In this document: piece by piece, positions 6,818 to 24,849 of the stretch
How positions within the stretch are numbered: the first letter of the stretch is position 1
Layout: every line of letters begins with the position of its first letter
Source of the DNA: Parvibaculum sp.
Lineage (GTDB): Bacteria > Pseudomonadota > Alphaproteobacteria > Parvibaculales > Parvibaculaceae
Reading direction: 5' to 3'
Length of the DNA: 64,000 nt
Assembly (NCBI GenBank): GCA_019635975.1
Contig: JAHBYM010000002.1
Span: 1 to 64,000 of the forward strand
Notes under the pieces: generated by a model
The model's input: the letters and a program-made list of their open reading frames with translations, nothing else
The model's database searches: none
What the model was told of the DNA's origin: nothing
Translations under genes and position numbers: made by a program

Positions 6818-6818
6818 G

Positions 6819-7305: not shown

Positions 7306-7378
7306 ATATGGTTTGAGACGGACTTGACAAAGTATTGTCTATCCGAACATACTTTCTTCATTGGAGGTAAAACCATAT
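7306..7378 (+). promoter_or_regulatory. abiE promoter flanked by a 9-bp inverted repeat
   Basis: TTGACA (7324-7329) and CATACT (7348-7353), 18 bases apart, form a good sigma-70-type promoter in an AT-rich stretch. It is bracketed by ATATGGTTT (7306-7314) and its exact reverse complement AAACCATAT (7370-7378). AbiEi proteins are known to repress their own operon by binding inverted repeats, so this pair is a reasonable operator candidate. A GGAGGT at 7363-7368 has no start codon at a useful distance. The untranslated leader to the abiEi ATG is about 60 bases. Confidence 0.55.
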
Positions 7379-7417
7379 CTGATATATTTCTTTTTCCGAT
7401 TATAAGAAAGTCTGATC

Positions 7418-8227: not shown

Positions 8228-9205
8228 ATGGCGGCGCCCTCGACCCAGACCCTGCAGCGCATCGCCAGCGAGACCGGTCATCAGGTCGGCACGCTCGAGA
8301 AGGTGATGCGCCTTCTCGACATCCTGCAGGAGATCGCTCGCGACCGGATTCTGAGCGAGCAATTCGCCCTCAAGGGTGGCACGGCGCTCAACGTCTTTCA
8401 TCTCGGTCTCGACCGTCTGTCGGTCGATATCGACCTCAACTATGTCGGCGCGCTCGATCGTGCGGCGATGGAAACTGAGCGGCCGCAGCTTGAGGCGGCT
8501 CTGGGCCGACTGCTGGCGTCCCAAGGATACGACATCCGTCGCCAGCCTGACGAGCATGCCGGTGGCAAGTGGATCATGCGCTTTGCGTCGGCGCTCGGCG
8601 GAAACGCGACGCTTGAGCTCGACGTGAACTACATGGCGCGTCAGCCTCTGTTCGGCACCGCCCGCGTATCGTCGGTCGCGCTTGGAGAAGTGCGTGCAAG
8701 CGACGTGCTGGTGCTCGATATTCATGAGGTCGTCGCCGGCAAGCTCGTCGCACTCTTCGATCGCCATGCCGCACGCGACCTTTTCGATGCGCGCCGTATC
8801 CTGTCGATTGAGGGACTGGACTGGAAGAACATCAAAGCCGCGTTTCTCGCGTTCGGCGCCTGCGCGCGCCGGGATTGGCGAGCGGTTTCGACCGACGCGA
8901 TCAAGGGCGACCCGCGGGAGCTTCGTCAGAAACTTATGATCTGCCTGCCGCGCGGTTACTTCGGCGGCAAAGACGAGATCGATGCGTGGATCGAGGAGAC
9001 GGTCGCGCTCTGCCGGGAGCGATTTGTACTTCTATTTGATCTGACCGCGACCGAGCGGGATTTTCTCGATGGCGTTCTCGACCGCGGTGAGATCAACCCT
9101 GATCTGCTTGATGTGGCGCCCGAGATACGGACGAGCATTGGTGCCATGCCGATGCTCGCCTGGAAATGTCAGCATGTTCGGAAACATCGGGGATTGGACC
9201 GATAG
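8228..9205 (+). CDS. abiEii: Nucleotidyltransferase AbiEii/AbiGii-family toxin
   Basis: The 325-residue toxin carries the expected nucleotidyltransferase motifs: FALKGGTALNVFHLG (GG-T-L, residues 47-61), SVDIDLNY (catalytic D-x-D, residues 66-73) and the downstream KLVALFDRHAARDLFDARRIL. AbiEii-type enzymes transfer nucleotides onto cellular targets, tRNA in characterised relatives, causing reversible growth arrest. It starts at the base after the abiEi stop. All motif residues appear intact, so the system is probably functional. Confidence 0.88.
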   Translation: MAAPSTQTLQRIASETGHQVGTLEKVMRLLDILQEIARDRILSEQFALKGGTALNVFHLGLDRLSVDIDLNYVGALDRAAMETERPQLEAALGRLLASQGYDIRRQPDEHAGGKWIMRFASALGGNATLELDVNYMARQPLFGTARVSSVALGEVRASDVLVLDIHEVVAGKLVALFDRHAARDLFDARRILSIEGLDWKNIKAAFLAFGACARRDWRAVSTDAIKGDPRELRQKLMICLPRGYFGGKDEIDAWIEETVALCRERFVLLFDLTATERDFLDGVLDRGEINPDLLDVAPEIRTSIGAMPMLAWKCQHVRKHRGLDR

Positions 9206-9307
9206 ATGCCAATGGTCAAACTGCGTCATTTGGTTCCAGTCGGCGACAGTGGACTCATTCAAATCTTGTTCACATTCTCGGAATCTCACATTCCGTCAGC
9301 CGCAAGT

Positions 9308-9339
9308 ATCGTTGGTTGCGGGCCCCCGCAACCAACGAT
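9308..9339. repeat. 15-bp inverted repeat resembling a tRNA 3' end; possible att site
   Basis: ATCGTTGGTTGCGGG (9308-9322) and CCCGCAACCAACGAT (9325-9339) are exact reverse complements separated by two bases. The stretch GCCCCCGCAACCA within it matches, from memory, the 3' end of alphaproteobacterial initiator tRNA-Met, but no other part of a tRNA is present. Conjugative elements often integrate into tRNA 3' ends, leaving such a remnant at the far junction. It falls where transfer and AbiE genes stop and the polysaccharide region begins. Confidence 0.5.
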
Positions 9340-9342
9340 CAG

Positions 9343-9374
9343 CCCGCCGCGCTTTACCGCCCGGCGGGTTTTTT
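9343..9374 (+). terminator. Intrinsic terminator after abiE / att-like repeat
   Basis: CCCGCCG (9343-9349) pairs with CGGCGGG (9362-9368), with a 12-base loop, and is followed by six T (9369-9374). It could end the abiE transcript, or be the original terminator of a tRNA gene into which the element inserted. Confidence 0.75.
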
Positions 9375-9456
9375 GTTGTGGCGGCGGCCGCCGCCGTTTT
9401 GCCCTGGCGCAGGGCGCGAAGAGGCGTATGCTGAGTACTCCCCTTTATCCCTCAAC

Positions 9457-9840
9457 CTATCCCCGGGTTGTCCCTGGGCAGGCAGCTGCGAGATATCCCC
9501 GGCAAGGGTCGCATCGGGCGCCGCGGCTTCCGGCAGGCATGGCATCGGTGTATTCGCCGAGGATGCGATGGGTGCGGCCGGAGAAGCGGTAGACGCGGAT
9601 ATTGAGGGGTGCCCGTTCGGTGAAATTCCGGGAGAGGTCGTAGCCATGGTCGAAGGCAACGATCGAGCCTTGATCGCCGGCCGGGCTGCCGTGAAACTCC
9701 GGCGACTTGAAATCGGCGCGGTCGCCGTTCTCGACCCATTCGAAACCGCCATCGCTCAGCGTACGGTAGATCTCCGTCAGCACCTTATCGAGATGGTAAA
9801 CATACTTCATGACGTCGACCGAGATGACGATTGAGCAAAT
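9457..9840 (-). pseudogene. C-terminal remnant of a class I SAM methyltransferase
   Basis: The reverse strand encodes VMKYVYHLDKVLTEIYRTLSDGG followed by a stretch with FKSPEFHGSPAGDQGS, FDHGYDLSRNF and HRILGEYTD. This resembles the second half of SAM-dependent methyltransferases that accompany glycosyltransferases (post-motif loop, D-G-G turn, late H-G-x-P and G-Y-D motifs). No SAM-binding half is present: all three frames upstream are broken by stops, with short scraps such as GVEYDIRDPW in another frame. I read it as a decayed gene fragment at the edge of the polysaccharide region. Confidence 0.5.
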
Positions 9841-10262
9841 CGCGCCAGTTGGCTCTGATCTCGTTCAGCACCGGCGTCAGCGCGCTTGCGCGGCACCGAG
9901 CCGCCGGGAAACCATATCTGATCGTGATGCCCAAGGGTCCCTGATGTCGTATTCGACGCCCTGTTCGAAAATTCAACAAGTTTACGAATACTGTTGTGTC
10001 TGCCGATTTTATCGGCTTGACGGGCTATTTTTTTGCGGGGAATGTTCGTCAGGGGTGGATGCTTTGATAAAGTTTGGTCGTCACGACGTCCGTCATGCGG
10101 GCCGAGTGAGGCTTGTTTTCGTGAATATGTGCCTTGGGGGATTTCTGACTTCGAGCAGAGGACGCGCTGTCGGATACTGGAGGGGTTGATATCACCTCCA
10201 AAGAGTGAGTTTGGCAAAAGACCAGCGCGATGCGACGGGGAAGAGATGCTACGAAATTGAAT
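9841..10262. other. Intergenic stretch with decayed sequence, no intact gene
   Basis: About 420 bases between the methyltransferase remnant and the large glycosyltransferase. I see only out-of-frame scraps of the remnant up to about 9970 and no convincing RNA gene or terminator. Base composition becomes more AT-rich here than in the transfer region. Confidence 0.4.
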
Positions 10263-13200
10263 ATGAAAACTCCGTTCCATCCTATCATACGAAGTGTAGC
10301 TGGAACGCTCCGTACCTTGCTCAGCAGTAATCGAGAACAGCTGAGGAAGCAGGCGGTTATCGTTGCTGAATCCGACCTGTTCGATGTTGAGTGGTACAAG
10401 GCCGCCTATCCCGATGTTGCCGCATCCGGCGCGGATCCGATAATGCACTATCTTGCGTATGGTGCTCGGGAAGGCAGGGACCCCGGGCCATGGTTCGACA
10501 CCCGCTGGTATTTGTTGCGATACCCGGATGTCGCTCAATCCAACGTCAATCCGCTACTTCACTACATCACGCATGGCGAGCAGGAAGGGCGCTTGCGGTG
10601 TAGCGCCGACCACATGCCGGAACCTTTTTCGGTTCCGCTCGACTTCGGCTTGTATGCGATGGCGCTTTTGGCTTTCTGGACTGCCGTCAATGAAGAAGTT
10701 TGCGGTGTGTCGAGGATTGCGGAGCAGGAAGAAACCGCTGTCCGGGTGTGGAAGCGAGCGCTTTCGCAATTCGAGGAGTTTTGGTCCGGAAGTTGGGAAT
10801 ATAATTCGGCGGGCAGGCTGTGCGGAGGAGCGGAAGAGGACGTCGCCCGTTATGTGCGCTCCAGATGGAAAGCATATGTGGAAGTCGCAACTGGAAACGC
10901 GGACGAAGACCGATTGATACTGCTTGCGGCCGACGCATTGGCACACTGGTCATCTCTGTCCGATGCCTCCACGCGCGCCCTTTCTCCCAGAAAGCTTCGC
11001 GCGCGAGTGCGGCATATTCAAACACAAGCACAAAGCCTCATCCGTGCATTTCTAAACGGGGAATTGACGGAAGTCGAAATCGGAGTCGGTCTCAATGTCT
11101 CGGCGGCGAGCGCTTTTCTTTGCATATCTGCGCTGCGCCTTGTTCTGCGGGACCTCACAGAAGACGGTGTGCGGCAGGTGCTCAAGCGCTTCCTCGACAC
11201 GGGGAGGGCTGCTCGCGACGCAGATGAACTATGTGGCGACGCCGAGAATGATGCGTGTGCGGTGATAGCCCATGCCGACGCGCTTGTGGATGCCGGCAAA
11301 TACGCCGAGGCTCTATGTGTTCTCAACGGCGAGGCTGGGGTTCAGGCAGAAGTTCGTCGGTTGCTTGTCGATCATGCTATCCGCGCTGACTGGACGGATT
11401 ATGACGCAGTTCTTGAAAAGATCGTCGATATCAGGCTTGTGCCGCTAGTGGAGAGATTGCGTATTTCGGCTGTGACGGCAGCCAACGGGTCCGCTGATCC
11501 GCTGTCGCGTATGAGCCCTCTGCGGCACGAGGTTTTGATACGACAACTACCGGCTTCATATGACGCGATGCTCGAGCGAATGAACGACTATTCGCTTGCG
11601 CCGTCTGGATATGAAGCCTTGGCGGCGTGGAAGATGCTCGAAGTTGTCTTGCGCGCCGGGATATCTCGACAGGCGGATGAAAGCACGGGCCATGTGTCTG
11701 TGCTGTTTATTCTTGAGGCACATGCTGTTGAGGCGCCTGCCGGATGGCTAAGGCACTGTGAGAGACTGCGGGGAAGTGGGGTGGAAGTGGCATTGATGCA
11801 TGCTTCCGCTTCGACGACAATCGCCGAACATGCTGGTCTGCGGGAAATATCATGCCTGGAGCAGTTGAAGGGGTTTCTTGCGTTACATCAAGGGCCGGTT
11901 CTTGTCGCTTTTGGTTATCAGTATGTGCCGTTCGATCTGGCGTGGTCGTGGAACAAGATTCTGGGTCCGGACGATGTGGCGCGGGTAGACGTCTTCAGGG
12001 TGCCGGCGCATCTTGAAACGCTGGCCAGCCTGCAGTTCGCCTATCTGAGTGATACGCCTGCGGCAATTCTGTTCGGGTCATCGGGGAACATCCGTTCTGG
12101 AGCGCTCTTCGACGATCCAGCCCTCTATATCGGCGAATCTCTGAAGCAGGCGTCCGGAGCGAGTATTGCGACATCAGCGGTCTCTCCGGTAACGGGCGGC
12201 TCGCATTTCCCCAATACGGTTATTGTCTGCGAGGAGAGCGCACTTGCTTCTCTTGCCGGCGCTGCCGAGCAGGTTGACATTGCGACTCTCGGAGGGAGTG
12301 ATGCTCTAGAAGGTGCCGGCGACAATCACGCATTTGCCGATCGGTCCTTGCGGCAGACGCTGACGGAAGTTCTTGTAAGAAAGCCGGAGGCGGATTGCTT
12401 CTTGTTCTTGTCGCGAGACATGAGTTACCCCCCGCACTATGTCAGAGATGCCTTGCGTACCTTTCGTGATCACGACGGGAAAGCGGACTTCTCGTTTCTT
12501 GCTCTCCAGTACGCAAGTTCCGCGAATGTCTACGAACCAGTTTTCGCCGATGGCGTGGATATCGTGGACATGGCATGTCTCGGAACCTGCTGTCTAAGGC
12601 GGGAGACGGTAGAGAAGTTGCTGAATCAGGAGCGTATGCTGGGGTTGTCTGCTGTCGTTGCGACGACGGCGCCGGCGTTCTTTTTCGTGCCGCTGTTTGG
12701 CCGGACGTTTTTTGAAAACCATGCCGCGCAGATCGGCGGCTTCCTCGACGGTGAACGAAAAAAGATCGGCATTGATACCGGTGCCGAATTCTCTTCATTG
12801 AGCGAGCGCACGCTGTCTTTGTCGGAGCCGTCGCGGAGGCTCGCGACATCGTTCATCAAGCGCGCCATGCGCTTGCAGTTGATGCTGGACAGAGACACGG
12901 CGAACGTGACGTCCATCTGCTCGGCGGCGGAGCTATCGAGAAGTATGGACGATGTGCTCTATCTGGTGCAGCGGGGACGGATCAGTGAGGCGAAGCGGCT
13001 AGTGTCCATCATCGTCGAGGTCGCGCCTGACTTTCTCCCTGACATAAAGAGGTACAATGCCCTCCTTTGCCTTGCAATTGATTTGGGCTTGCAGTCGGAT
13101 TTTGCCGTAGCGCACCGCGGGCTAATCGCCGAAGTCCTGAAGAAGCATCAACGGCACATTCATCTCTTCTTTGATGTTCTGGCGTCGGGTCTCTCGAAGG

Positions 13201-14684
13201 CCGAATTGGAGGCGGCGCTGGATGACGCCGCGGTTGCTGCTGTTGCACTTGACTATGACCAGCTGCTCTTCACGATCATCGGAGTCTACAAGAAATACGC
13301 ATCTCCCGACATGAAGCTCACGTTGCTTCGCCGTCTCGCAGTGGGGTTGACGGAAGCACGCAAGGGCAACCCACGCCTTAGAAATGAGTTGAGTTCGCTT
13401 GTGGAGGAGATCGATATCAAGAAATTGAGCAAGAGGTCGAGTGAGTTCTCCATGCAAATGGGGTTCGTGCCTTCCTTGTCTCTTGACAGTCGGCTTCGAC
13501 AAGCTTTGAGGGATCTGGATCGAAGGCAGTTGATACTTTCTCTTCGCAGCTGGATGGCTGCCGGCCGCCCCCTGATTGATCTGTGCAAACTTCTGAGAAC
13601 ATACAGCCACGAATTGTCGTCGATGAGTATCGGCGAGAAGGTTTCCGAATACAGGATTTGCGACGATGCCTTCTCCCGGCTTGTGTTTGCGACTATTGTC
13701 GGTGACGAGGTGTATCTTCGTAGCGTGGTGGATGCGCACACGCAGCCGGATACAAGTGACGTTGCTGTTGTGGCGCGAGCGAGGACCGGTCAGTTCGATT
13801 GGCTTGAAACGTTGATTGCCGAGCTCGGACGACCACTGCTTCTAGCTACGCCGAGATTTAGCGGGGGGACGCTCCAAACCTTTTTCTCGTCGGTGATGAG
13901 TGCGACGAGCGGGCGGGCCGCTGACGGTCGATTACCCAAAGTCAGCGTCGTCATGTCCGTATACAACCCCGATATTGAACTGATGGAAATGGCAATCGCG
14001 TCCGTGCTGATTCAAGAAGGCGTCGAGGTCGAGCTCATTCTTCTAGATGACGCTTCGGAGCCCGGAGTTGCGAGCCGAATCGAAGAAGTCGCAAGGAGAA
14101 ATTCCGGTATTGTTTATGAGCGGATGCCGAGGAATGCAGGGCCCTATATCGCGCGCAACCGTGCTTTGGAACTTGCGACAGGGGAGTTTATTGCAATACA
14201 GGATGGCGATGACGTGTCCCACCCGGTGCGCCTTGCCACGCAAGTAAAAGCTCTGAACGACGCGGGCCCGGAGGCGGTGCTGGCGACGAGCTATCACTTG
14301 CGTGTCGACGCTGGCGGATACCCGCAACTTGAAGCCGATTTCAATCTGTTTGGCGATGGAACGATGACGTCTTTGTTCCGGCGCAACGTATTCGAAAAGA
14401 TCGGCGGATTTGTAAAAGTGCGCTCCCGAGGAGACGTGGAGATGAGGGAGAGAGTGAGATCCGTATTTGGAGATCGAGCCATTGTGCAGGTCGACTACCC
14501 ACTGGTTTATTGCAACGCGTCTCCGGCGACATTATCCAATCGAGTCGCTGCGTCGTCACTGCACTATCTCAAGCTGTTCCGATCTAATTTTGCGCGTCAG
14601 CATCGGTATCTTTGGCGTGCAGCCAATGTCGGCGAGACTATAGCTGCGCCGGATTCCGCCGTTCCGTGTCAGCTGCGACCTTGA
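10263..14684 (+). CDS. Very large glycosyltransferase with N-terminal YPDV repeats and C-terminal GT2 domain
   Basis: A 1,473-residue protein built as follows. Two tandem copies of a roughly 36-residue module lie near the N terminus (LFDVEWYKAAYPDVAASG, HYLAYGAREGR, then WFDTRWYLLRYPDV, HYITHGEQEGR). A long middle region I cannot assign includes a possible GT-A-like stretch (DCFLFLSRDMSYPPHYVRDAL) and a helical TPR-like part. A GT2 domain occupies about the last 260 residues: KVSVVMSVYNP, LILLDDASE, NAGPYIARNRALELATGEFIAIQDGDDVS. It should transfer sugar in the cytoplasm for a surface polysaccharide. An ATG at 10230 is also in frame; neither start has a strong ribosome site. Confidence 0.82.
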   Translation: MKTPFHPIIRSVAGTLRTLLSSNREQLRKQAVIVAESDLFDVEWYKAAYPDVAASGADPIMHYLAYGAREGRDPGPWFDTRWYLLRYPDVAQSNVNPLLHYITHGEQEGRLRCSADHMPEPFSVPLDFGLYAMALLAFWTAVNEEVCGVSRIAEQEETAVRVWKRALSQFEEFWSGSWEYNSAGRLCGGAEEDVARYVRSRWKAYVEVATGNADEDRLILLAADALAHWSSLSDASTRALSPRKLRARVRHIQTQAQSLIRAFLNGELTEVEIGVGLNVSAASAFLCISALRLVLRDLTEDGVRQVLKRFLDTGRAARDADELCGDAENDACAVIAHADALVDAGKYAEALCVLNGEAGVQAEVRRLLVDHAIRADWTDYDAVLEKIVDIRLVPLVERLRISAVTAANGSADPLSRMSPLRHEVLIRQLPASYDAMLERMNDYSLAPSGYEALAAWKMLEVVLRAGISRQADESTGHVSVLFILEAHAVEAPAGWLRHCERLRGSGVEVALMHASASTTIAEHAGLREISCLEQLKGFLALHQGPVLVAFGYQYVPFDLAWSWNKILGPDDVARVDVFRVPAHLETLASLQFAYLSDTPAAILFGSSGNIRSGALFDDPALYIGESLKQASGASIATSAVSPVTGGSHFPNTVIVCEESALASLAGAAEQVDIATLGGSDALEGAGDNHAFADRSLRQTLTEVLVRKPEADCFLFLSRDMSYPPHYVRDALRTFRDHDGKADFSFLALQYASSANVYEPVFADGVDIVDMACLGTCCLRRETVEKLLNQERMLGLSAVVATTAPAFFFVPLFGRTFFENHAAQIGGFLDGERKKIGIDTGAEFSSLSERTLSLSEPSRRLATSFIKRAMRLQLMLDRDTANVTSICSAAELSRSMDDVLYLVQRGRISEAKRLVSIIVEVAPDFLPDIKRYNALLCLAIDLGLQSDFAVAHRGLIAEVLKKHQRHIHLFFDVLASGLSKAELEAALDDAAVAAVALDYDQLLFTIIGVYKKYASPDMKLTLLRRLAVGLTEARKGNPRLRNELSSLVEEIDIKKLSKRSSEFSMQMGFVPSLSLDSRLRQALRDLDRRQLILSLRSWMAAGRPLIDLCKLLRTYSHELSSMSIGEKVSEYRICDDAFSRLVFATIVGDEVYLRSVVDAHTQPDTSDVAVVARARTGQFDWLETLIAELGRPLLLATPRFSGGTLQTFFSSVMSATSGRAADGRLPKVSVVMSVYNPDIELMEMAIASVLIQEGVEVELILLDDASEPGVASRIEEVARRNSGIVYERMPRNAGPYIARNRALELATGEFIAIQDGDDVSHPVRLATQVKALNDAGPEAVLATSYHLRVDAGGYPQLEADFNLFGDGTMTSLFRRNVFEKIGGFVKVRSRGDVEMRERVRSVFGDRAIVQVDYPLVYCNASPATLSNRVAASSLHYLKLFRSNFARQHRYLWRAANVGETIAAPDSAVPCQLRP

Positions 14685-14698
14685 TCGTGGGCGCCGAC

Positions 14699-15520
14699 AT
14701 GATTGCCAGTGATATGCCCAGAATTTTCATCAGCCTAACGACAGTTAGCGGACGAGTGGAGGGGGTTGCGCAAACCATAGAATCCCTTCTTGCCCAAAAT
14801 TACGAGAATATTTCCGTCCTGCTGCACCTGTCGCACGATCCCTATCTCCTGGACGAAGGAATATGTGGTGTACCGGAGTCGCTTGATCGATTGCGGCGGG
14901 CGGACAGGAGATTTGAAATCAGGTGGGTTCCAAACATGGGACCTTACCGGAAGCTGTTGCCCGTACTGGCATGGCTCGGGGGCAGAAGCGAACTGGTGGC
15001 CACCGCTGACGACGACACAATATACCCCCAGGGCTGGTTAAAGCAGCTGTTCGCTTTGTACCTCAAGCAGAGATGTGTGATCGCCTATCGGGGCCATCGC
15101 ATGACGCACAGGGACGGTGTATTCCTGCCATACAGGAGTTGGATGCAATCTTCTATTGTGCGGAATCCGGACCTGCTTTTGTTGCCGACGGGAAAAGATG
15201 GCGTGTTGTACAACTCGGCATATTTTTCTCCCGGCGTATTGGATTATCAAACAGCGAGGCGGCTGGCCCCGACGGCGGACGATATATGGTTCAAGTGGCA
15301 TACCGCCATGAGCGATGTGTCGGTATACTTGGCAACGACGGATTACCGACGCAGTACACTGGCAAGCATTGATGATGGTGGAGCATCCCTGTATCTGAAG
15401 TTCAATAAAGACGGTGGAAACGACGCGATCATCGGTCGAATTCACCAGTGGGCGAAAACAGAACGGTCGTTTGATATCGTCGCCACCGCTGAGGGGCAGG
15501 AGGGCTACAAGGCTAGCTGA
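14699..15520 (+). CDS. Glycosyltransferase (GT-A fold, DxD motif)
   Basis: The protein starts MIASDMPRIFISLTTVSGRVEGVAQTIESLLAQNY, a GT-A nucleotide-sugar fold, and has GGRSELVATADDDTIYPQGWLKQLF with the metal-binding D-D-D cluster near residue 104. Length is about 273 residues, on the small side, so it is probably a single-domain enzyme. The reading frame extends upstream to 14612 into the previous gene, but the ATG at 14699 (or 14714) gives the natural family start. It follows the large glycosyltransferase by 14 bases. The sugar specificity cannot be read from the sequence. Confidence 0.75.
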   Translation: MIASDMPRIFISLTTVSGRVEGVAQTIESLLAQNYENISVLLHLSHDPYLLDEGICGVPESLDRLRRADRRFEIRWVPNMGPYRKLLPVLAWLGGRSELVATADDDTIYPQGWLKQLFALYLKQRCVIAYRGHRMTHRDGVFLPYRSWMQSSIVRNPDLLLLPTGKDGVLYNSAYFSPGVLDYQTARRLAPTADDIWFKWHTAMSDVSVYLATTDYRRSTLASIDDGGASLYLKFNKDGGNDAIIGRIHQWAKTERSFDIVATAEGQEGYKAS

Positions 15521-15592
15521 GAGCGGGTTTGCCGGGATCGATGCGGGGAGCTGACGCCCGGCGCGGCATGCGGCTGGAAGCGAGGAGCGGCT

Positions 15593-16303
15593 ATGCAGAG
15601 TGTTTTCGACTATTTGGCGCCATCTATTCCTGAAGATCACTGTCGTCAGGTTTCTGCGGCACAAATGATCGCGGATATGGTTCGGGCAGGCTACAGGGCT
15701 GCGGATGTCCTTGATCTTGGCTGTGGCGACGGGAGGTCAGTAGATCTCTTTTCGCGCTGGTTGCCCGATGCCAAATGGACGGGGGTGGACATCGAAATGT
15801 CGCCCGAAGTGGCGGCACGCTCCAGGGCGGATGCAAACTTTGTTACCTATGATGGCATTCATGTTCCATTCCCGGGCCAGAGTTTCGATCTGATTTATTC
15901 ATATCAGGTGTTCGAGCACGTGCGGTTTCCGGAGGACATACTTCGAGAGTGTGCCCGTGTATTGCGCCCAGGCGGAATTTTGCTTGGCCAAACTTCGCAT
16001 CTCGAGCCCTATCACTCCTACAGCATCTGGAACTTCACCCCCTACGGTTTCAAACGGCTGTGCGACGACAACGGACTGCGTCTGGTGCAGTTGAGGCCCG
16101 GAATCGACGGAAAGACGCTGGTTGAGCGGACGATGTTGGGACGTCCGAAGGAATTTTCTCGATGGTTCTCGGAGGAGTCGCCCGTGAACCAGGAGATCGA
16201 GGCAGCCGCGATCGCTCAGGGGAAGAAGAGTAAGATAGTGAACTTCCGTAAGCTGATGGTTTGCGGACAATTCGTTTTTATGTGCGAGGCGTCGACGTTG
16301 TAG
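15593..16303 (+). CDS. Class I SAM-dependent methyltransferase
   Basis: The 236-residue protein has motif I VLDLGCGDGRSVDLF (residues 39-53), an acidic VDIE after strand 2, FDLIYSYQVFEHVRFPEDILRECARVLRPGG, and a tail with GQTSHLEPYHSYSIWNFTPYGF. GAGGAGCGG lies upstream of the ATG. It is a close paralogue of the N-terminal domain encoded at 18548, sharing SIP-DHCRQ at the start and EYSRWF/EFSRWF-EESPVN near the end. A role in O-methylating a sugar of the local polysaccharide is an inference from context. Confidence 0.85.
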   Translation: MQSVFDYLAPSIPEDHCRQVSAAQMIADMVRAGYRAADVLDLGCGDGRSVDLFSRWLPDAKWTGVDIEMSPEVAARSRADANFVTYDGIHVPFPGQSFDLIYSYQVFEHVRFPEDILRECARVLRPGGILLGQTSHLEPYHSYSIWNFTPYGFKRLCDDNGLRLVQLRPGIDGKTLVERTMLGRPKEFSRWFSEESPVNQEIEAAAIAQGKKSKIVNFRKLMVCGQFVFMCEASTL

Positions 16304-16331
16304 CAAGTGTCGGGTCGAACTGGGTGTTTTG

Positions 16332-17528
16332 ATGGGGGAACAAGAAGCGGTGGGTTCATATCTGGTTGTTGGAATGGAGAAAAGCGGCACGTCAGCAATG
16401 TATTCCATGCTGAAGTCCGCTTTGCAAGACCCGGTTTGTTGCTTTGAAGCCAGTAGCGTACGGCAGATCGACTTTCTCTTTGGTGCTGCCGCAGACCGAG
16501 ACAAATTGACGAAGGCGCTTTATCACGGATTTGATGACAACATTGGCGCTCTCAACGGCTTCGATCGCAAGGTTCATATTCTCAGAGACCCGAGAGATGT
16601 CGTCATCAGCTATCTGCTCTATTGGCCGCTTCTGCGCGGGCGCCATCTGCAGGTGGAGTTCATATCGGAGTTCGTGGGTTTGCTCAAAAGGAAGGAAGCT
16701 GATCCTCATTCGGTGAACCTGCGGGATTTCTCCGAGCTGACGACCCGGCATGGTTTTCAATTTCTACAGCCTCAGGATTTCCTCGCCTTGTGCCGGAACG
16801 CATTCAAGTATGACCGGGAGCTCCACGGAGCGCATGTCATGAAATACGATTCCCTGATTTCGGGCGAACTCGGGCCGACTGAGGATTATTTGGGGTTTTC
16901 CTTGCCGCGTTTGGCCAAGGTGAGCGACCACATTTCCTATAATGAGCGTCAGAAGGCGCTCGGAATCTGGCGGGACTGGTTCACCCCGACTGATGTCGAT
17001 GATTACCGGTCGTCTTTATCTGGCTTTATAAAGCATTTCGGTTTTGATTCCGACTGGACCTTGAGCGAGGAGCCGTACATCGCGCCGGAGTACGGGTCGG
17101 GCTACATATCCAAGTCGGTGGCGAAGCTCACTGAATTTCCCGCGTCGAGCAGTGAACTGCGCGAAGCCAGATACTATACAGACGCATACATCGCTCACCT
17201 GCAATCCGCCAGATCGGACGGTATTGAAAGCGCCATCATAGAGTTGGCCCTGGCTCATTTTGTTGGGTATGGCGTCGAAAAAAGTCTTGATCAGTATCGC
17301 GCCTATCTCCATGAGGCATATGAGCGGGGGAACGTCACCGCGATGATCCATCTCTTCGCCGCTTCACATTCGGGGATTATCGATCTCGGCTCCGGTCCAA
17401 GCGAAAGCGATTTGGCAAATGAGGCGGTCTCTTGCACAGGGAGTCGAACGTTCAAGCGTCGGGCTCGTCATATACTGGATTTTTACGAGGTACAGGTGGC
17501 CGGGTCTGCCGCCCTCCGCGTGTGTTGA
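16332..17528 (+). CDS. Sulfotransferase-domain protein with Sel1-like C terminus
   Basis: PAPS-dependent sulfotransferase of 398 residues. The 5'-phosphosulfate loop is GMEKSGTSAMYSML (near residue 14) and the 3'-phosphate motif is HILRDPRDVVISY (near residue 84). After the catalytic domain there is a Sel1-like segment (ELALAHFVGYGVEKSLDQYRAYLHEAYERGNVTAMIHL). The ATG at 16332 is preferred over the adjacent TTG at 16329. Lying among glycosyltransferases and methyltransferases, it probably sulfates the glycan or a lipid-linked intermediate; the acceptor is unknown. Confidence 0.8.
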   Translation: MGEQEAVGSYLVVGMEKSGTSAMYSMLKSALQDPVCCFEASSVRQIDFLFGAAADRDKLTKALYHGFDDNIGALNGFDRKVHILRDPRDVVISYLLYWPLLRGRHLQVEFISEFVGLLKRKEADPHSVNLRDFSELTTRHGFQFLQPQDFLALCRNAFKYDRELHGAHVMKYDSLISGELGPTEDYLGFSLPRLAKVSDHISYNERQKALGIWRDWFTPTDVDDYRSSLSGFIKHFGFDSDWTLSEEPYIAPEYGSGYISKSVAKLTEFPASSSELREARYYTDAYIAHLQSARSDGIESAIIELALAHFVGYGVEKSLDQYRAYLHEAYERGNVTAMIHLFAASHSGIIDLGSGPSESDLANEAVSCTGSRTFKRRARHILDFYEVQVAGSAALRVC

Positions 17529-17708
17529 GGCATTCCATTCCCGTCCGTATTGGGTATGAAAGTGGAGGCGGACTTTGCGCAAGTGGTGTGCGCTGGATTG
17601 ATAAGTTGGCAGTTTTGCTTATTGTGATCGGAGTTCGGTTCGCCTGACAGAGGCAGGTTGTTTTCCCGGTTTGTGCGGGTGGGGGTATCATTGGACACTG
17701 GCTCGACT

Positions 17709-18416
17709 ATGATTGCGGCGCAATGCCCGCTTTGTGGCGGAAGCGAATTCGGGGATTATCGTTCCAGAAAGAAGGTGCGCTGCACAGCCTGCGGGTCGTT
17801 TGAGCGCGGTCGCTTTCTGGGGCTGGTTCTACAACGTGCCGCCCCGGCGGCAACGGGATCGCCGGTCGTCCATTTTGCTCCGGAGGTCGGAACGTCGAAG
17901 GTTTTGAGGTCGCTGTATGGAGAAGCATACCAGCCGGCCGATGTCAGCCCCGATTCCTACCCCTGGATGGATATTCCAGTTCGTCAGATCGATCTCCAAT
18001 ATCCGTCTCGCTACTTGGCCCCCGAAAGTGTACTGGGGCTAGTCCACAGCCACATCCTGGAGCATATACCGGGAGATCTCACCAACAGCCTTTATGAGAT
18101 GAACGCCGCTATCGAGGTGGGTGGGTTTCACATCTTCGTCGTTCCGTTCTTTTCGGACTGGTACAGAGAAGATATGGATTCCGGCATGAGCCGCGAGGAA
18201 AGAGATCGCCTGTTTGGTCAGTGGGACCACGTACGGTCGTTCGGGCGCCGCGATTTTCTGGATCGCATCGGGCCGTGCTTCCGGAATTTTGAGCGTATTC
18301 ATTTGAATGACATTGTCACTGTCGATGACCTCGTCGCCGCTGCTGTGCCCCCCAGCGCCCTGACACAGCTCACGGCACATAGCGTTTTCTATTTCAGAAA
18401 GTTGCGATCGCTTTGA
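17709..18416 (+). CDS. Methyltransferase-like protein with N-terminal zinc ribbon
   Basis: The product begins MIAAQCPLCGGSEFGDYRSRKKVRCTACGSFERGR, a four-cysteine zinc ribbon of C-x2-C...C-x2-C form. A Rossmann-like part follows (GSPVVHFAPEVGTSKVLRSLYGEAYQPADVSPDS) with SHILEHIPGDLTNSLYEMNAAIEVGGFHIFVVPF, the usual post-motif region of SAM methyltransferases. The SAM-binding glycine loop is replaced by APEVG, so activity is not certain. In-frame TTG codons at 17658 and 17691 could extend it. The 180 bases before it hold no gene I recognise. Confidence 0.7.
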   Translation: MIAAQCPLCGGSEFGDYRSRKKVRCTACGSFERGRFLGLVLQRAAPAATGSPVVHFAPEVGTSKVLRSLYGEAYQPADVSPDSYPWMDIPVRQIDLQYPSRYLAPESVLGLVHSHILEHIPGDLTNSLYEMNAAIEVGGFHIFVVPFFSDWYREDMDSGMSREERDRLFGQWDHVRSFGRRDFLDRIGPCFRNFERIHLNDIVTVDDLVAAAVPPSALTQLTAHSVFYFRKLRSL

Positions 18417-18547
18417 GCGGGTAAAAAAGGGGTTTCGCGCAACGCCTCCATCCGGGTGCTGATAATAATGTGCGGGGTGACGGGTTGGTGGTGCCCGCCA
18501 CGTCTTGTGTGACAGATGTGTTGATTTCTGCAGGGGAGCTGGGCGCT

Positions 18548-20146
18548 TTGGAGACCATCTACGAATACTTGAAGTCTTCGATTCCTGCGGATCATTGCAG
18601 GCAGTCAAGGGCGATAGATCTGGTGATCGCGCGTATTCGCGCCGGATTTCGACCTGCCAAAGTTCTTGATTTGGGTTGCGGGGCTGGCAACACCGTCGAT
18701 TTCTTTCGGTCACGCCTTCCGGAAAGTAAATGGGTAGGTGTCGATGTCGAGCAGAGTCCCGAGGTTGCGACGCGTACGCGGAGCGATGCGACGTTTGTCA
18801 CCTTCGACGGAGTAAATCTGCCCTTTGCCGATGGGGAGTTTGACCTGATCTATTCCAATCAGGTGCTGGAGCATGTGCGCCATCCTGAGCGGCTTTTGTC
18901 TGAAGTGCACCGGGTGTTGTCGCCGGACGGGTTTTTTATCGGACAGACGTCGCATCTTGAGCCTTTCCATTCCTTCAGTTACTGGAATTTTACGGCCTAT
19001 GGCTTCAAGGAAATTTGTGAGTCCGCCAATCTCAGGCTGGTGGAGATTCGGCCGGGTATAGACGGCATAACGCTGGTGAAGAGGGCCTACCTGGGGCGTC
19101 CTGCTGAATATTCCCGGTGGTTCGCGGAAGAGTCTCCTGTCAATGTTGAAATCGAGGAGTCTGCGAGGAAGAAGAGTCGAAGCGCGCAGACAATAAATTA
19201 CCGCAAGTTGATGTATTGCGGGCAATTCGCCTTTGCGTGCCAACGGAAGCGCCATAGGGACGAGGAGAAAGAGCCGAGCGACGGATTTGTAAACCGTCTC
19301 GCGCAGCAGGTGACAGGGAAGGCGCGCCGTGCAATGCGCGCGCGAACCGACAATGACGCACATATGCTTGCTCTTCCCGGTGGAATGTTGATCGAATATA
19401 GCTGCCCACGGCGGTTCCATATTCCGCGTGCACTGAGCGGTGTGGGGCTTGCGGGATATGAGCCGGTTACGATGGCGGCCTTCCTGGCATCCGCGGAAAG
19501 TGTCGAAGGGGCAGTCTTCGATGTTGGAGCGAACATCGGAATATATGCTCTGGCGGCGGCGAGTGCATTGGGAAAGACGTGTATCGCTTTCGAACCGTTT
19601 CCTGCTGCGGCGGATGTTTTGGAAGACATCGTGAAGAGATATCAGTTGCCGGTCTCACTGCGGCGGGCCGCCCTGGCGGAGAATAGCGGTGCAACGACTT
19701 TCTATCTGTCAGCGCGCTCAGACATGAGCAACAGTCTTAACCCGGAATTTCGTGAGCATCGCGGAGAGATTGTTGTGGAGACAACGACTCTGGACAAGGA
19801 GTCGCTTTCTTGCCGACTCGGTGTCGTGAAAATCGATACTGAAACGACGGAGATGGATGTGTTGCGTGGTGGCAGGCACGTTTTCGAGCGTGATCGCCCC
19901 AGTGTGATCATCGAGATTCTCGATGACAATCTAGCGATGGAAGCGCGCGGTTTCTTCGCGTCCTACGGATACACCATTACCGAACTTGGAAAGCCAGACG
20001 TTTGGCGGCGGATCAGTGGATCGAGCGGTGAAGTTATTCTGGGAGATCGCCGCAACTGGCTTGCGTCTCCACAGCCGTTGGGAGACAAATTTTTTGAGCG
20101 AGCGGCATTCTGGGCCGCGAACATGCGCGATCTTCCGGCGTTTTGA
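18548..20146 (+). CDS. Fused class I methyltransferase - FkbM-family methyltransferase
   Basis: Two enzymes in one 532-residue chain. Residues 1-235 are a class I SAM methyltransferase (VLDLGCGAGNTVDFF, LEHVRHPERLLSEVHRVLSPDG), closely related to the stand-alone protein at 15593. A basic linker leads to an FkbM domain at about residues 290-500 (VFDVGANIGIYALAAASALG, CIAFEPFP, VVKIDTETTEMDVLRGG). The frame is open back to a GTG at 18470, but TTG at 18548 aligns exactly with the ATG of the paralogue (ETIYEYLKSSIPADHCRQ versus QSVFDYLAPSIPEDHCRQ) and has AGGGGAG upstream. Two distinct methylations of the same glycan are plausible. Confidence 0.83.
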   Translation: METIYEYLKSSIPADHCRQSRAIDLVIARIRAGFRPAKVLDLGCGAGNTVDFFRSRLPESKWVGVDVEQSPEVATRTRSDATFVTFDGVNLPFADGEFDLIYSNQVLEHVRHPERLLSEVHRVLSPDGFFIGQTSHLEPFHSFSYWNFTAYGFKEICESANLRLVEIRPGIDGITLVKRAYLGRPAEYSRWFAEESPVNVEIEESARKKSRSAQTINYRKLMYCGQFAFACQRKRHRDEEKEPSDGFVNRLAQQVTGKARRAMRARTDNDAHMLALPGGMLIEYSCPRRFHIPRALSGVGLAGYEPVTMAAFLASAESVEGAVFDVGANIGIYALAAASALGKTCIAFEPFPAAADVLEDIVKRYQLPVSLRRAALAENSGATTFYLSARSDMSNSLNPEFREHRGEIVVETTTLDKESLSCRLGVVKIDTETTEMDVLRGGRHVFERDRPSVIIEILDDNLAMEARGFFASYGYTITELGKPDVWRRISGSSGEVILGDRRNWLASPQPLGDKFFERAAFWAANMRDLPAF

Positions 20147-20225
20147 TAGACTTCCTGCGATCGGATGGGTGGAAGCTGCTTCACTCCAGGTGGTATGCGG
20201 AAACAAGTAAATTGACAGAGTTCCA

Positions 20226-21440
20226 TCAGTGGTCGACATCGATCTCCGCATAGGACATGACTCGCAATCGCTCGATTTGTTCATGAGATAGAATGCCGCG
20301 CTCAATGTATTCATGAGCGTTTTTCAGTTGTACGATTCGAGCGTTCACATCCAGCGATTGTCTGTTTGTAATGTTATTCAGATCTTTGGAAATGAAGTAC
20401 TGAACGGTAATGATGGGAACGAAGGCGGGCACATCTTCTTTGGTGTAGCGAATTATTAAATCCCAGTCGACCAGACGACTCAGGGTTTCATCGAAATCGC
20501 CGTGGCTCTCATACATCTCCCGCCGATGAACGAAGCAGTTCAGGTCGATGAAATTCGAACGAAGAAGCTGGGCGCGATTGTATTCGCTGTACAGTATGCG
20601 CGACTCGCCAGCATCAACGTCGTTGAATTGGAGTGCCGAATAGGCGCAGCGTTTACCAGGGGTGGTCAGCATCCCGGTCAACATCCAAAGCAAGTGATCA
20701 TTGTGCCAGAAGTTGTCGGAATCAAGATAAGCAAATATATCGCCTGACGCAGCCCTCATCGCGGCGTTTCGGGCTTTTGAAACGCCGCCATGCGCATTTT
20801 GGATTATCTTCACATATCCTGAGTCGACCTCGCGGTGAAACTCATTCGATAACAGTTTGACCGTATCGTCGTCGCTGCCATCATCGGAAATCAGTACTTG
20901 GTACGGCTGAATACTTTGTCTGAGTGCGGATTCCACGGCCCGAGCGACGGTCGACCTCCTGTTCCACGTAGGAATAATTACGCTGACCTTGGCGTCCTTA
21001 TCCTCAAGAATGCGCACTGCCTCGTTTCTTGCGGCAGGCAATATGTCATCAGCGCGGATCGGCGTCGTGCTGGATAGCAGTGTTTGAATGTCGTTTATAT
21101 CAAGCACAGAGTTTAACGGTCGGAACGATGTATAGTTTGGTGGTGGAAATGCTCCAGACAGACCGCGCGTTCGTCCCTCGCGCTTTCCGATCGTCGCGTA
21201 GTGCACAAGCGGGTTGATGCCGGCGATGGCGACGTCGGGGTTGGCGGCAACATAGGCGCGTGTGTCGAAGGTGGGCGAGGGGTTGCGGCCAATTTGCGCA
21301 CCAACCCACAGATAGTGTTCGACGGGGTCGAGACCGAGCGCCTCGACGTCCGGATATTGCGCGAGGTACCATGCGGTATCGAACAGTCCCGAGTCACGGA
21401 CTGTTGCGATGTCGTTCTCGAGCATACCGATCGACTTCAT
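20226..21440 (-). CDS. GT2-family glycosyltransferase with two N-terminal YPDV modules
   Basis: The 404-residue protein starts at 21440, where ATGA overlaps the stop of the upstream sulfotransferase. Two modules lie at residues 20-90 (LFDTAWYLAQYPDVEALG, then FDTRAYVAANPDV... HYATIGKREGR). A GT2 domain follows: AKVSVIIPTWNRRSTVARAVESAL, QVLISDDGSDDDTVKLL, GGVSKARNAAMRAASGDIFAYLDSDNFW with the D-x-D motif. It is convergent with the FkbM fusion and co-transcribed with the sulfotransferase. The acceptor sugar is unknown. Confidence 0.85.
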   Translation of the reverse strand: MKSIGMLENDIATVRDSGLFDTAWYLAQYPDVEALGLDPVEHYLWVGAQIGRNPSPTFDTRAYVAANPDVAIAGINPLVHYATIGKREGRTRGLSGAFPPPNYTSFRPLNSVLDINDIQTLLSSTTPIRADDILPAARNEAVRILEDKDAKVSVIIPTWNRRSTVARAVESALRQSIQPYQVLISDDGSDDDTVKLLSNEFHREVDSGYVKIIQNAHGGVSKARNAAMRAASGDIFAYLDSDNFWHNDHLLWMLTGMLTTPGKRCAYSALQFNDVDAGESRILYSEYNRAQLLRSNFIDLNCFVHRREMYESHGDFDETLSRLVDWDLIIRYTKEDVPAFVPIITVQYFISKDLNNITNRQSLDVNARIVQLKNAHEYIERGILSHEQIERLRVMSYAEIDVDH

Positions 21441-22777
21441 GTCCGGTCCACGGTTGTTCCGTCCGCCCGGTTGCGGATGGCGGGTGCTTGCGCCCCGTTT
21501 GGCGCGCGACCTTCGCGGAAGCCATAGCGCACGTAGTGGCGCAGCGGGTTCATGCCGGATGCGGCGACGTCCTTGTGGACGCGTTTGTACCAATCGGCGT
21601 CGAAGAGGCCGGAGCGCCGGACCCGCACCATCTGTTGCCACACCCGTATGGGGGCAGGCAGGAACGATAGGGCGCGCGGGTCAAGCAGCACTTCGAGCGC
21701 GCCACGGTCCCTTGCCACCAGCTCCTTCTCGCGTATCAGCCGGGTCAACGCGGCGATCTCTTCGAAGCGTGCCGCGAGGTCCGCTTCGGCTTTTGTCATG
21801 ACCTCTCTCAATTGGGCCTCGGCGCGTGTCCGCGCAGCTCTTTCCGCGTCCGCCAGTGCCAGTGCCTCGTCGGCGCTCTGCTGTCGCGTAGAGACAAGAC
21901 GCGCGAACGCGGGTGCAGCGTCGTCGAACGCTAACCTGATTGCATCGAGCGATGCAAAGTCGGCGGGATTTTCTCCTTCGCTCGCCCAGCGGCTGAAAAT
22001 TTCAAACGTATCGCGCAGCCATGCTGGAAGTGCCGGGTTCTCGACGACCCGCGTTTGCGGTTCGCAGTGATGGCGCAGCTTGTCGACAAGGAAGGCGTCG
22101 ATCTCCGGTCCGGCGCTTTCGGGTGAGTGAGGCCATGAAAAGCCGAGTGTCGTTGCGGCACGTGCGACGAGCCCCGGCCAGTCGTTCATCAGCTCGTCGT
22201 AACTGCAATGGAAGCGCGGTACACCGCGCGATGCCGCCTCGGCCTCCAGCACGTGGCGCAACCAGATGAGATGCCCGAGTTCCGGGGGAAAACCATCGCG
22301 CCGTTCGAGAGAGGCCGCGACTTCCAGTGGATTGCGCACCGGCAGAACGACCCGGGGTTGCACATCCGCTTCCTTGAGGATATCGAACCAGAAGGACGTG
22401 ATGCGGCAAATGCGTGGATCCTTCAGGATGAAGAATGACGACGTGCCGAACTCGTCCTTCAACGCGGCGGCGGCGCGAGCCTTGAATTCGCCGGCCTGGG
22501 GCGAGGCATACCAGCGGTCGTTAAAGCGCAACCAGTCGTCCCAGCTCGATCCGGTGGAGTCGAGGATCGCGTGATTCAATTCCGAGATCTGGTTCGATTC
22601 CCAATATCCTGCCTCATTGTATTTGTTCGGCTGCATCAACTTTTTCGGCAGGTCCGCGCCCATAAGCGCCAGTACGCGCGATATCGCGCTGGTGCCGGAG
22701 CGATGCATGCCCAGCACCAGCAAACAGACGCGTACGGAAGAAACACTCTTCTCCCGATTGTTGACTTTATTGGTCAC
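21437..22777 (-). CDS. Sulfotransferase with coiled coil and C-terminal YPDV-type module
   Basis: The protein has 446 residues from a GTG start behind GAGGA. The 5'-PAPS loop is VLGMHRSGTSAISRVLALMG (residue 21 on), followed by the AGYWES and ILKDPR motifs and a 3'-phosphate region VVLPVRNPLEVAASL. A predicted coiled coil with many Ala/Glu/Arg residues covers about 300-350 (ADAERAARTRAEAQLREVMTK). The last 60 residues hold one copy of the module: FDADWYKRVHKDVAASG, NPLRHYVRYGFREGR. A sulfotransferase carrying the same module as neighbouring glycosyltransferases suggests a shared scaffold. Confidence 0.83.
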   Translation of the reverse strand: MTNKVNNREKSVSSVRVCLLVLGMHRSGTSAISRVLALMGADLPKKLMQPNKYNEAGYWESNQISELNHAILDSTGSSWDDWLRFNDRWYASPQAGEFKARAAAALKDEFGTSSFFILKDPRICRITSFWFDILKEADVQPRVVLPVRNPLEVAASLERRDGFPPELGHLIWLRHVLEAEAASRGVPRFHCSYDELMNDWPGLVARAATTLGFSWPHSPESAGPEIDAFLVDKLRHHCEPQTRVVENPALPAWLRDTFEIFSRWASEGENPADFASLDAIRLAFDDAAPAFARLVSTRQQSADEALALADAERAARTRAEAQLREVMTKAEADLAARFEEIAALTRLIREKELVARDRGALEVLLDPRALSFLPAPIRVWQQMVRVRRSGLFDADWYKRVHKDVAASGMNPLRHYVRYGFREGRAPNGAQAPAIRNRADGTTVDRT

Positions 22778-23244: not shown

Positions 23245-24693
23245 CTACATGTATTGCCCGCCTGTGGCTTCCATTCCCGCGCTACTTCCGGGCAGATAGC
23301 TCGCACCGCCGCCATTCGTGTTGATGACGCTGTTGCCGTCGACCCGGTAGCGGGTTCCGGTCGCACCACCCGTAAAGGTGGTGCCGTTGACCATCATCAT
23401 CCCGAGGTAACGCGCATCGGCGAAGAGCGTGATGGCGGGTGTACCGGTGAGGGTGATGGTGATGTTCTGCGCGCGAATAATGCCTTGTCGCGCGGTTGCC
23501 CAATGTCCACCTGCTCCACCGAGTATCGAATAGTCTCCCTGGGCTTCGACGATGGCAAGATCGGCGGCGCGGATGTGCTGGCTCCAGCCGGCACCGAACT
23601 CGACATTGCGGAAGAGGATGGTGGACAATTTTTCTGCAAACAGGCCGAAGGTTGCACCGCTACCGGGTCCGACAAGGCGGACACCCCGAAGATCGTAGAT
23701 CGTGGCGACGCCCGTTGATGTTAGCCCGCTTTCGTTTGCCGATGTCGTTTCCAGAACGACGTTCCCTGGCGTCGTCGTGTCGCCAATGATGGTGATTTTT
23801 CCGGCCCCGACCATGGCTTTGGCAACAAGACCGGGGCCGGCTGAGTAGGTGCCCGCGCCGAGTTCGATCGTCACATCGTAGATCGAGCTGTCGAGCGCGG
23901 CGGCCGTGTCGATGGCGTGCTGGATTGTCAGAAAAGCGCCGCCCGCATCGTTGACAAACCCGGTGTTGTCGTCGTTCCCATCGGTGCGGACGTAATAGGT
24001 GCGGGGTCCGGTCAACGGTTCGCGGTAGTCCGAGCCGGAGGGAAAGCCGACCTTTCCCGTTTCCCGGTCGACGACGATTGATTGCCGCCACGCCGATCCA
24101 TCCGAGCTCACCTTGAAAGTCAGGTCGTCGTTTCCGGTCAATCCGATTTCCCCGTGACCGGAGTATCCGCTCTGAAAGAGAAGCGCAGCCGTATTCTCGG
24201 CGCCGGCCTTGTTTACGATGACATGCAGGTTGCCGGTGCCGGGCGTCATGTCGTCGTGCGATATGAGGACGGCATCAGACTTGACCGCGAAGCGGTTTGT
24301 TTCGTCGGCCGAGGTGTTGATGCCCAGCATGTACGCTGCGCCGGCCGCCGGTGCGAAGTCGATCCAGCCGGGGGCGGAGAAGACCAGCAGCTTTCCCTCG
24401 TCCTTGACCCAGGCGAGCCAGCCGGCGTTCGGCACCATGAAAAGCCATTGGCCGTCGAGCCATGCTGCGATGCTGCCGTCCCGTCCGTTCCACGCGCCGG
24501 TTGCGTCGGCCGCGACGATGTGGCGTTCGCCGGGCACGGGTTCGGAGGGCGGCGCGGCAAAACCGCGGCTTTCTACCGCGAGCTGCACGAGCGCGTCGAG
24601 CTTTCGCATCGCCTCGTTATGCGTCACATGCTTTTGTGCCTGACTTGGCATGATGTAAGGCAGGCTGAGTAGTTCGGTCGTTTCGGAAGACAT
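23245..24693 (-). CDS. DUF2793 protein with right-handed beta-helix; phage or GTA spike-like
   Basis: A 482-residue protein starting MSSETTELLSLPYIMPSQAQKHVTHNEAMRKLDALVQL, the hallmark of DUF2793, with AGGGATCG before the ATG. The first 200 residues are the DUF2793 region (WLDGQWLFMVPNAGWLAWV, GWIDF). From about residue 230 a pectate-lyase-like beta-helix begins (RTYYVRTDGNDDNTGFVNDAGGAFLTIQHAID, then many short beta repeats with NITITLTG). There is no signal peptide. This layout is that of phage tail spikes and, from memory, of the capsule-binding fibres of gene transfer agents. No other phage gene is nearby. Confidence 0.75.
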   Translation of the reverse strand: MSSETTELLSLPYIMPSQAQKHVTHNEAMRKLDALVQLAVESRGFAAPPSEPVPGERHIVAADATGAWNGRDGSIAAWLDGQWLFMVPNAGWLAWVKDEGKLLVFSAPGWIDFAPAAGAAYMLGINTSADETNRFAVKSDAVLISHDDMTPGTGNLHVIVNKAGAENTAALLFQSGYSGHGEIGLTGNDDLTFKVSSDGSAWRQSIVVDRETGKVGFPSGSDYREPLTGPRTYYVRTDGNDDNTGFVNDAGGAFLTIQHAIDTAAALDSSIYDVTIELGAGTYSAGPGLVAKAMVGAGKITIIGDTTTPGNVVLETTSANESGLTSTGVATIYDLRGVRLVGPGSGATFGLFAEKLSTILFRNVEFGAGWSQHIRAADLAIVEAQGDYSILGGAGGHWATARQGIIRAQNITITLTGTPAITLFADARYLGMMMVNGTTFTGGATGTRYRVDGNSVINTNGGGASYLPGSSAGMEATGGQYM

Positions 24694-24849
24694 GGGCGAT
24701 CCCTTTTCGGTTTTTCCGGGCTGCTTTCTCCGGACACGGCCATCGTAGGGCGCGGTGCGGGGGGCGGGGATAAGTTCGCGGTCGGGTTTGTTGCGCCTTT
24801 TCCGGCAATGGCTTATCGAATTCCTGTAACGTTGAGCGGCGGGGGAACG

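What the first reader, a model, noticed from the sequence alone, without database searches (positions are those of the whole stretch)
10380..22777. An uncharacterised YPDV/HY/EGR module shared by glycosyltransferases and a sulfotransferase
The same module of about 36 residues (F-D-x-x-W-Y-x-x-x-Y-P-D-V, then N/D-P-L-x-H-Y-x-x-x-G-x-x-E-G-R) occurs twice at the N terminus of the 1,473-residue glycosyltransferase (10380-10592), twice in the GT2 enzyme at 20226 (21171-21383) and once at the C terminus of the sulfotransferase at 21437 (21506-21604). Enzymes with different chemistries sharing one non-catalytic module suggests a docking or glycan-binding part that gathers the pathway into one complex. 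I know no function for this repeat.
Basis: partly seen in the sequence, partly recalled or inferred. Interest (0 to 1): 0.75.

Follow-up and report, generated by a model that had tools for sequence, protein, structure and literature searches.

The report
Portable repeat joining sugar-polymer enzymes
A 37-residue, three-helix repeat, absent from the domain and structure libraries searched here, sits at the joint between sugar-polymer-building enzymes and the enzymes that cap those polymers, and probably acts as an exchangeable coupling that holds them together.

Summary
Five copies of a ~37-residue module lie in three window proteins, and there are none elsewhere in this genome. No model in Pfam, NCBIfam or PHROGs covers it, and no PDB chain matches it by sequence or fold. 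It is not local: one scan gave 324 confirmed stretches across many bacterial phyla. In the 91 loci analysed for architecture it is N-terminal on glycosyltransferases, C-terminal on transferase-plus-coiled-coil proteins, or between the two in one fused chain. It also ends secreted proteases, adhesins and phage endolysins, and occurs on giant-virus glycan enzymes.

AlphaFold2 gives a confident three-helix repeat (pLDDT 95). The window shows the recurring pair: sulfotransferase–coiled coil–module, then, overlapping by ATGA, module–module–GT2. Sulfotransferase and glycosyltransferase modules are fused around the array in other genomes. In two same-genus genomes the sulfotransferase gene and the partner's module pair are conserved, and homology stops at the array's last base: three unrelated glycosyltransferases sit on the same coupling.

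Best reading: a docking adaptor of a WbdD/WbdA-like capping–polymerising complex (0.5). Main rival: a glycan-binding module (0.35), favoured by the endolysin and adhesin contexts. Neither binding mode could be tested here.

The parts
10230..14684 (+). Large glycosyltransferase (1473 aa if read from 10263): two N-terminal modules, a long middle region without a Pfam match, GT2 domain near the C terminus
   Evidence: ORF; Glycos_transf_2 E 8.5e-21 at residues 1228-1358
10377..10484 (+). Module copy 1 (LFDVEWYKAAYPDVAASGADPIMHYLAYGAREGRDP)
   Evidence: HMM 71.9 bits, E 2.1e-19
10488..10592 (+). Module copy 2 (PWFDTRWYLLRYPDVAQSNVNPLLHYITHGEQEGR)
   Evidence: HMM 70.9 bits, E 4.0e-19
21437..22777 (-). 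Sulfotransferase-like protein (446 aa): catalytic domain, coiled-coil stretch, one C-terminal module
   Evidence: Sulfotransfer_3 25.8 bits against a cut-off of 27; natural fused relatives pass the cut-off at 32.5 and 51.3 bits
21623..21886 (-). Predicted coiled-coil stretch before the module (about residues 298-385)
21500..21610 (-). Module copy 3 (GLFDADWYKRVHKDVAASGMNPLRHYVRYGFREGRAP)
   Evidence: HMM 66.9 bits, E 7.4e-18
21437..21440 (-). ATGA overlap: stop of the sulfotransferase and likely start of GT2
   Evidence: sequence read
20226..21440 (-). GT2 glycosyltransferase: two N-terminal modules then a GT2 domain
   Evidence: Glycos_transf_2 E 4.2e-25; start codon
21279..21389 (-). Module copy 4 (GLFDTAWYLAQYPDVEALGLDPVEHYLWVGAQIGRNP)
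   Evidence: HMM 65.9 bits, E 1.5e-17
21168..21275 (-). Module copy 5 (PTFDTRAYVAANPDVAIAGINPLVHYATIGKREGRT)
   Evidence: HMM 61.6 bits, E 3.4e-16

Best explanation
The module is a portable coupling (docking) repeat of glycan-assembly enzymes. In the window, a sulfotransferase that modifies or caps the growing chain carries one copy at the end of a coiled coil. The translationally coupled GT2 next door carries a pair at its N terminus. The copies hold the two enzymes together, so that the capping site lies a coiled coil's length from the polymerising site, as in WbdD/WbdA. The large glycosyltransferase joins the same assembly through its own pair. Shown: the copies, their fold as a confident prediction, the recurrent C-terminal/N-terminal pairing, natural fusions, and swapping of catalytic domains at the array border. 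Inferred: that the contact is protein to protein through the modules, that the coiled coil measures chain length, and that the sulfotransferase caps.
For: (1) Position rule over 91 loci: of 23 genes with C-terminal modules and a coiled coil, 12 are followed directly on the same strand by a gene with N-terminal modules, against 3.1% of all genes in these loci; for C-terminal-module genes without a coiled coil it is 0 of 9, Fisher p = 0.012. (2) Fusions: parts before the modules in split proteins match parts before the modules in single-chain proteins (16 of 34), and parts after them match parts after (40 of 50); the window's sulfotransferase matches the start of a Sulfotransfer_3-coiled coil-modules-WbsX-GT4-GT2 chain. 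(3) Same genus: one relative has this sulfotransferase (57.6% identical) fused through two modules to another domain. Two others keep the sulfotransferase gene and a 92%-identical module pair in the next gene, which then continues into unrelated proteins; DNA identity of 96.7% ends at the last base of the array, and the weaker identity to the window ends one base earlier. (4) ATGA coupling in the window. (5) WbdD recruits WbdA through its C-terminal non-catalytic region (PMC3482155), and in Klebsiella the same functions occur split or fused (PMC11231755). (6) In giant viruses a relative sits on a predicted nucleotide-sugar reductase, which has no polymer to bind.
Against: No binding is shown, and no complex could be modelled. 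Many loci have N-terminal-module glycosyltransferases with no C-terminal-module partner within 10 kb; in L012 the sulfotransferase directly upstream lacks the module. The superfamily also sits where cell-wall-binding domains sit in endolysins and at the end of secreted proteases and adhesins, which docking alone does not explain. No ABC exporter lies in the window; a KpsM/T/E-like set is on another contig.
Confidence: 0.5

Rival explanations
1. The module is a small carbohydrate-binding repeat. On glycosyltransferases, methyltransferases and sulfotransferases it holds the growing chain; on secreted proteases, adhesins and endolysins it anchors the protein on the cell-surface or cell-wall glycan.
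For: Two copies fill the C-terminal binding-domain position of a phage endolysin/amidase, and AlphaFold2 predicts the same three-helix pattern there from an independent alignment. Arrays stand beside choline-binding repeats and a glucosaminidase-like region in L018, end M10 RTX proteases and end a 3,400-residue FG-GAP/Ig-like adhesin. The same core residues stay conserved in every context. Nearly all fused domains act on glycans.
Against: It does not by itself explain the C-terminal/N-terminal pairing of neighbouring genes, or the inheritance of sulfotransferase plus module pair as a unit while the glycosyltransferase changes. A giant-virus nucleotide-sugar reductase carrying it would have no polymer to hold (annotation only).
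Confidence: 0.35
2. The module is a passive spacer or folding cap that separates catalytic domains and binds nothing.
For: It is often internal between domains (26 proteins) and copy number varies from 1 to 11, as expected of a spacer.
Against: A spacer has no reason to lie at the free C terminus of one protein and the free N terminus of the next, nor to form an array at the tail of secreted proteins. H, Y, D, G, E and R are near-invariant across contexts, although that may be structural.
Confidence: 0.1
3. The copies are recent internal duplications inside one gene cluster, with no common role across proteins.
For: Copies within a protein are similar and clusters recombine.
Against: The repeat occurs across many phyla with the same fusion partners and positions.
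Confidence: 0.03

Closest known systems
WbdD/WbdA chain terminator and polymerase of ABC-transporter-dependent O antigen (E. coli O9a, K. pneumoniae O3; split and fused forms in Klebsiella O4, O7, O12)
   Same: End-modifying transferase, coiled coil, then a C-terminal region next to a glycosyltransferase partner; both split and single-chain layouts exist
   Different: The enzyme here is a sulfotransferase rather than a kinase/methyltransferase, and a defined repeat, also present on the partner, sits at the recruitment position; binding and length control are untested here; no exporter in the window
C-terminal cell-wall-binding repeats of endolysins (choline-binding and CW_7-type repeats)
   Same: Short repeats in arrays at the tail of wall-cleaving enzymes; one module relative stands beside choline-binding repeats
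   Different: No sequence match to any Pfam repeat; most copies found here sit on biosynthetic enzymes; ligand unknown. The comparison with CW_7 is from memory and was not tested
Carbohydrate-binding module on the Wzt nucleotide-binding subunit of the O-antigen exporter
   Same: A non-catalytic part of the same kind of pathway that could recognise the glycan end
   Different: Not attached to a transporter here. The Wzt module is a beta-sandwich (from memory), whereas this one is all-helical

Membership tests
WbdD/WbdA-type terminator-polymerase system | N-terminal enzyme that modifies the chain end | tested here: inconclusive
   Sulfotransferase-like: 25.8 bits against a cut-off of 27 in the window, above the cut-off in fused relatives; acting on a chain end not testable
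WbdD/WbdA-type terminator-polymerase system | Coiled coil between the catalytic domain and the C-terminal recruitment region | tested here: met
   Crude heptad scan: 88 residues in the window protein, and at least 42 residues in 23 C-terminal-module genes; no dedicated coiled-coil predictor was available
WbdD/WbdA-type terminator-polymerase system | C-terminal region recruits the polymerising glycosyltransferase | not testable with these tools
   Only indirect: gene pairing, fusions, swapping at the module border
WbdD/WbdA-type terminator-polymerase system | Dedicated ABC exporter in the locus | tested here: not met
   No KpsM-like protein in the 64-kb window; KpsM/T/E-like genes on contig C32 of the genome; in L128, which has a 58% identical sulfotransferase, KpsM/T/E adjoin a module glycosyltransferase
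WbdD/WbdA-type terminator-polymerase system | Membrane-associated amphipathic helix near the C terminus | not tested
   -
Known domain of Pfam or NCBIfam | Match over the curated cut-off | tested here: not met
   No match over cut-off for the modules in Pfam or NCBIfam; among 102 tandem copies the best Pfam value was E 0.0024 in 3 members
Known PHROGs family | Significant match to the family profile | tested here: not met
   Module sequences: best E 0.34
Known fold with a solved structure | Foldseek or profile match in the PDB | tested here: not met
   Best Foldseek E 8.5; best profile E 7.1
Carbohydrate-binding module | Demonstrated glycan binding | not testable with these tools
   Only its position in an endolysin and in secreted proteins

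The most novel reading that the evidence does not exclude
A single three-helix repeat of a new fold is a general snap-on coupling of glycan machinery in bacteria, phages and giant viruses. Arrays on separate proteins join end to end into one solenoid, so glycan assembly lines can be rewired by swapping whichever catalytic domain follows the coupling.
Probability: 0.25. Interest if true: 0.85.

Novelty: new variant of a known kind. Interest (0 to 1): 0.63.

Why it matters
How polymerising, modifying and capping enzymes of bacterial polysaccharides find each other is known for only a few O antigens. A recognisable module that marks the partners would allow complexes to be predicted from sequence across many capsule and exopolysaccharide loci, including plasmid-borne E. 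coli clusters. It also deserves a library entry: Pfam and NCBIfam do not name the repeat in the proteins tested, and no solved structure matches it.

Tried and rejected
Pfam and PHROGs scans of module-only sequences, and Pfam and NCBIfam scans of the whole proteins: nothing for the module above chance. PDB by sequence and by fold: nothing. Motif strings in the open-access paper library: no paper; this misses subscription journals, and InterPro and CDD were not available. A giant-virus check in IMG/VR by DNA pattern gave mostly phage-like contigs; the pattern itself demands H..G..EGR, so scores of those loci are partly forced by selection. A strict reading of the 51% match between the window GT2 frame and L253 was dropped, because its first 67 residues are out-of-frame sulfotransferase DNA; only the module region counts. 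Surface conservation could not be computed because model coordinates are not released.

Full report
Observation. The five copies are real and are the only ones in this genome. The core is F-D-x-x-x-Y-L-x-x-x-P-D-V-x-x-x-G-x-x-P-x-x-H-Y-x-x-x-G-x-x-E-G-R-x-P. In the window they sit at the N terminus of two glycosyltransferases and at the C terminus of a sulfotransferase-like protein, as reported.

Is it known? Module-only sequences find no family above chance in Pfam or PHROGs, and the module regions of the full proteins find none in Pfam or NCBIfam. Among 102 tandem copies only three gave any Pfam match, the best at E 0.0024. Profiles find no PDB chain, and Foldseek finds none either. Motif strings occur in no open-access paper held. 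That is a statement about these collections only.

Distribution. tblastn of plasmids gives 137 records and 416 places, including capsule-type clusters on E. coli plasmids. A scan of one genome per species gives 324 confirmed stretches, of which 80 loci were kept, from Alpha-, Beta- and Gammaproteobacteria, Acidobacteria, Verrucomicrobia, Chloroflexi, Melainabacteria and Actinobacteria. Across all loci then held, 169 proteins carried 517 copies. Within the window's genus presence is patchy, as usual for glycan loci.

Architectures. Over the 91 loci used for architecture there are 51 proteins with modules at the N terminus, 42 at the C terminus, 26 internal, 6 module-only and 8 cut by contig ends. 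The N-terminal class is glycosyltransferases wherever scanned. The C-terminal class with a coiled coil often begins with Methyltransf_24, and in the window with a sulfotransferase. The internal class joins both halves in one chain, for example Methyltransf_24-coiled coil-modules-GT2-GT2 (L057, L059) and Sulfotransfer_3-coiled coil-modules-WbsX-GT4-GT2 (L117). A further class is secreted: M10 RTX proteases with six copies, a giant FG-GAP/Ig-like adhesin with six copies at its last residues, and a phage endolysin with two copies where its binding domain should be.

Fold. The window tandem is predicted with pLDDT 95.1 and pTM 0.83 as three short helices per repeat. The endolysin tandem, from an independent ten-sequence alignment, gives pLDDT 93.7, pTM 0.81 and the same pattern. 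Both models retrieve the same giant-virus proteins (Klosneuvirinae and relatives) annotated as glycosyltransferases, an FkbM methyltransferase and a nucleotide-sugar reductase. A profile trained only on glycosyltransferase copies finds the protease, adhesin, L018 and endolysin copies, with no match in shuffled or reversed controls. The invariant residues are the same in all contexts.

The joint. Of 23 genes with C-terminal modules and a coiled coil, 12 are followed at once on the same strand by a gene with N-terminal modules; the background is 3.1% of genes. By eye L088 is a thirteenth that the gene caller missed. In 16 of 23 such a partner lies somewhere in the locus. The window pair overlaps by ATGA. 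Sequence comparison of the halves confirms that single-chain proteins are fusions of the same kinds of part: 16 of 34 upstream parts and 40 of 50 downstream parts of split proteins match the corresponding part of a fused one.

Swapping at the border. In two same-genus genomes (L253, L262) the 3' end of the sulfotransferase gene and the module pair of the next gene are 96.7% identical in DNA, and identity ends at base 10345 of the reversed L253, which is the computed last base of the module array. The alignment of the window to L253 ends one base earlier. Beyond that point L253, L262 and the window continue into different proteins: no match at all or one weak 28% stretch. In a fourth genome the sulfotransferase is fused through two modules to another domain.

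Mechanism. WbdD recruits WbdA through its C-terminal non-catalytic region (PMC3482155). In Klebsiella, terminator and polymerase parts occur separate or fused, with a coiled-coil ruler between (PMC11231755). The layout here matches that logic with a defined module at the recruitment position, so docking is the best-supported function for the window (0.5). The endolysin and secreted contexts pull towards glycan binding (0.35), and the two may both be true in different branches. Neither was measured.

Limits. The coiled-coil call is a crude heptad rule. The KpsM/KpsT pair was found in only 12 of 80 loci within the flanks held, and in this genome on another contig. Viral loci were partly selected by motif. 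Many N-terminal-module glycosyltransferases have no visible C-terminal-module partner.

Noticed in passing
BFVD hits: Relatives of the module in Klosneuvirinae and other giant viruses, on predicted glycosyltransferases, an FkbM methyltransferase and a nucleotide-sugar reductase.
   Followed up: partly
L155:7604-8998 (-), L018:1451-3817 (+): A long-gap form of the module at the C terminus of a phage endolysin/amidase, and next to choline-binding repeats with a glucosaminidase-like region.
   Followed up: partly
L133, L205, L206, L151, L165: Single or paired long-gap copies in uncharacterised phage proteins; the one L133 and one L151 protein scanned match no PHROGs family.
   Followed up: partly
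L006 (NZ_CP145673.1) 4785-19385: Plasmid-borne capsule-type cluster in E. coli (exporter genes, methyltransferase with coiled coil and modules, GT2, N-acetylneuraminate-synthase family gene) between insertion sequences.
   Followed up: partly
L022 / G013:C343: Relative of the fused sulfotransferase-module protein of G001 in which the sulfotransferase domain appears deleted in frame while modules and the following domain stay 78% identical.
   Followed up: no
15593-16303 and 18470-19300 (+): Two methyltransferase domains that look like close paralogues, the second fused to an FkbM methyltransferase.
   Followed up: no
7418-9202 (+): AbiEi/AbiEii-type toxin-antitoxin pair directly before the glycan genes.
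   Followed up: no
23245-25107 (-) and 24808-26883 (+): DUF2793 protein and RgpF-type protein on opposite strands whose longest frames overlap by about 300 bases; the true DUF2793 start is probably internal.
   Followed up: no
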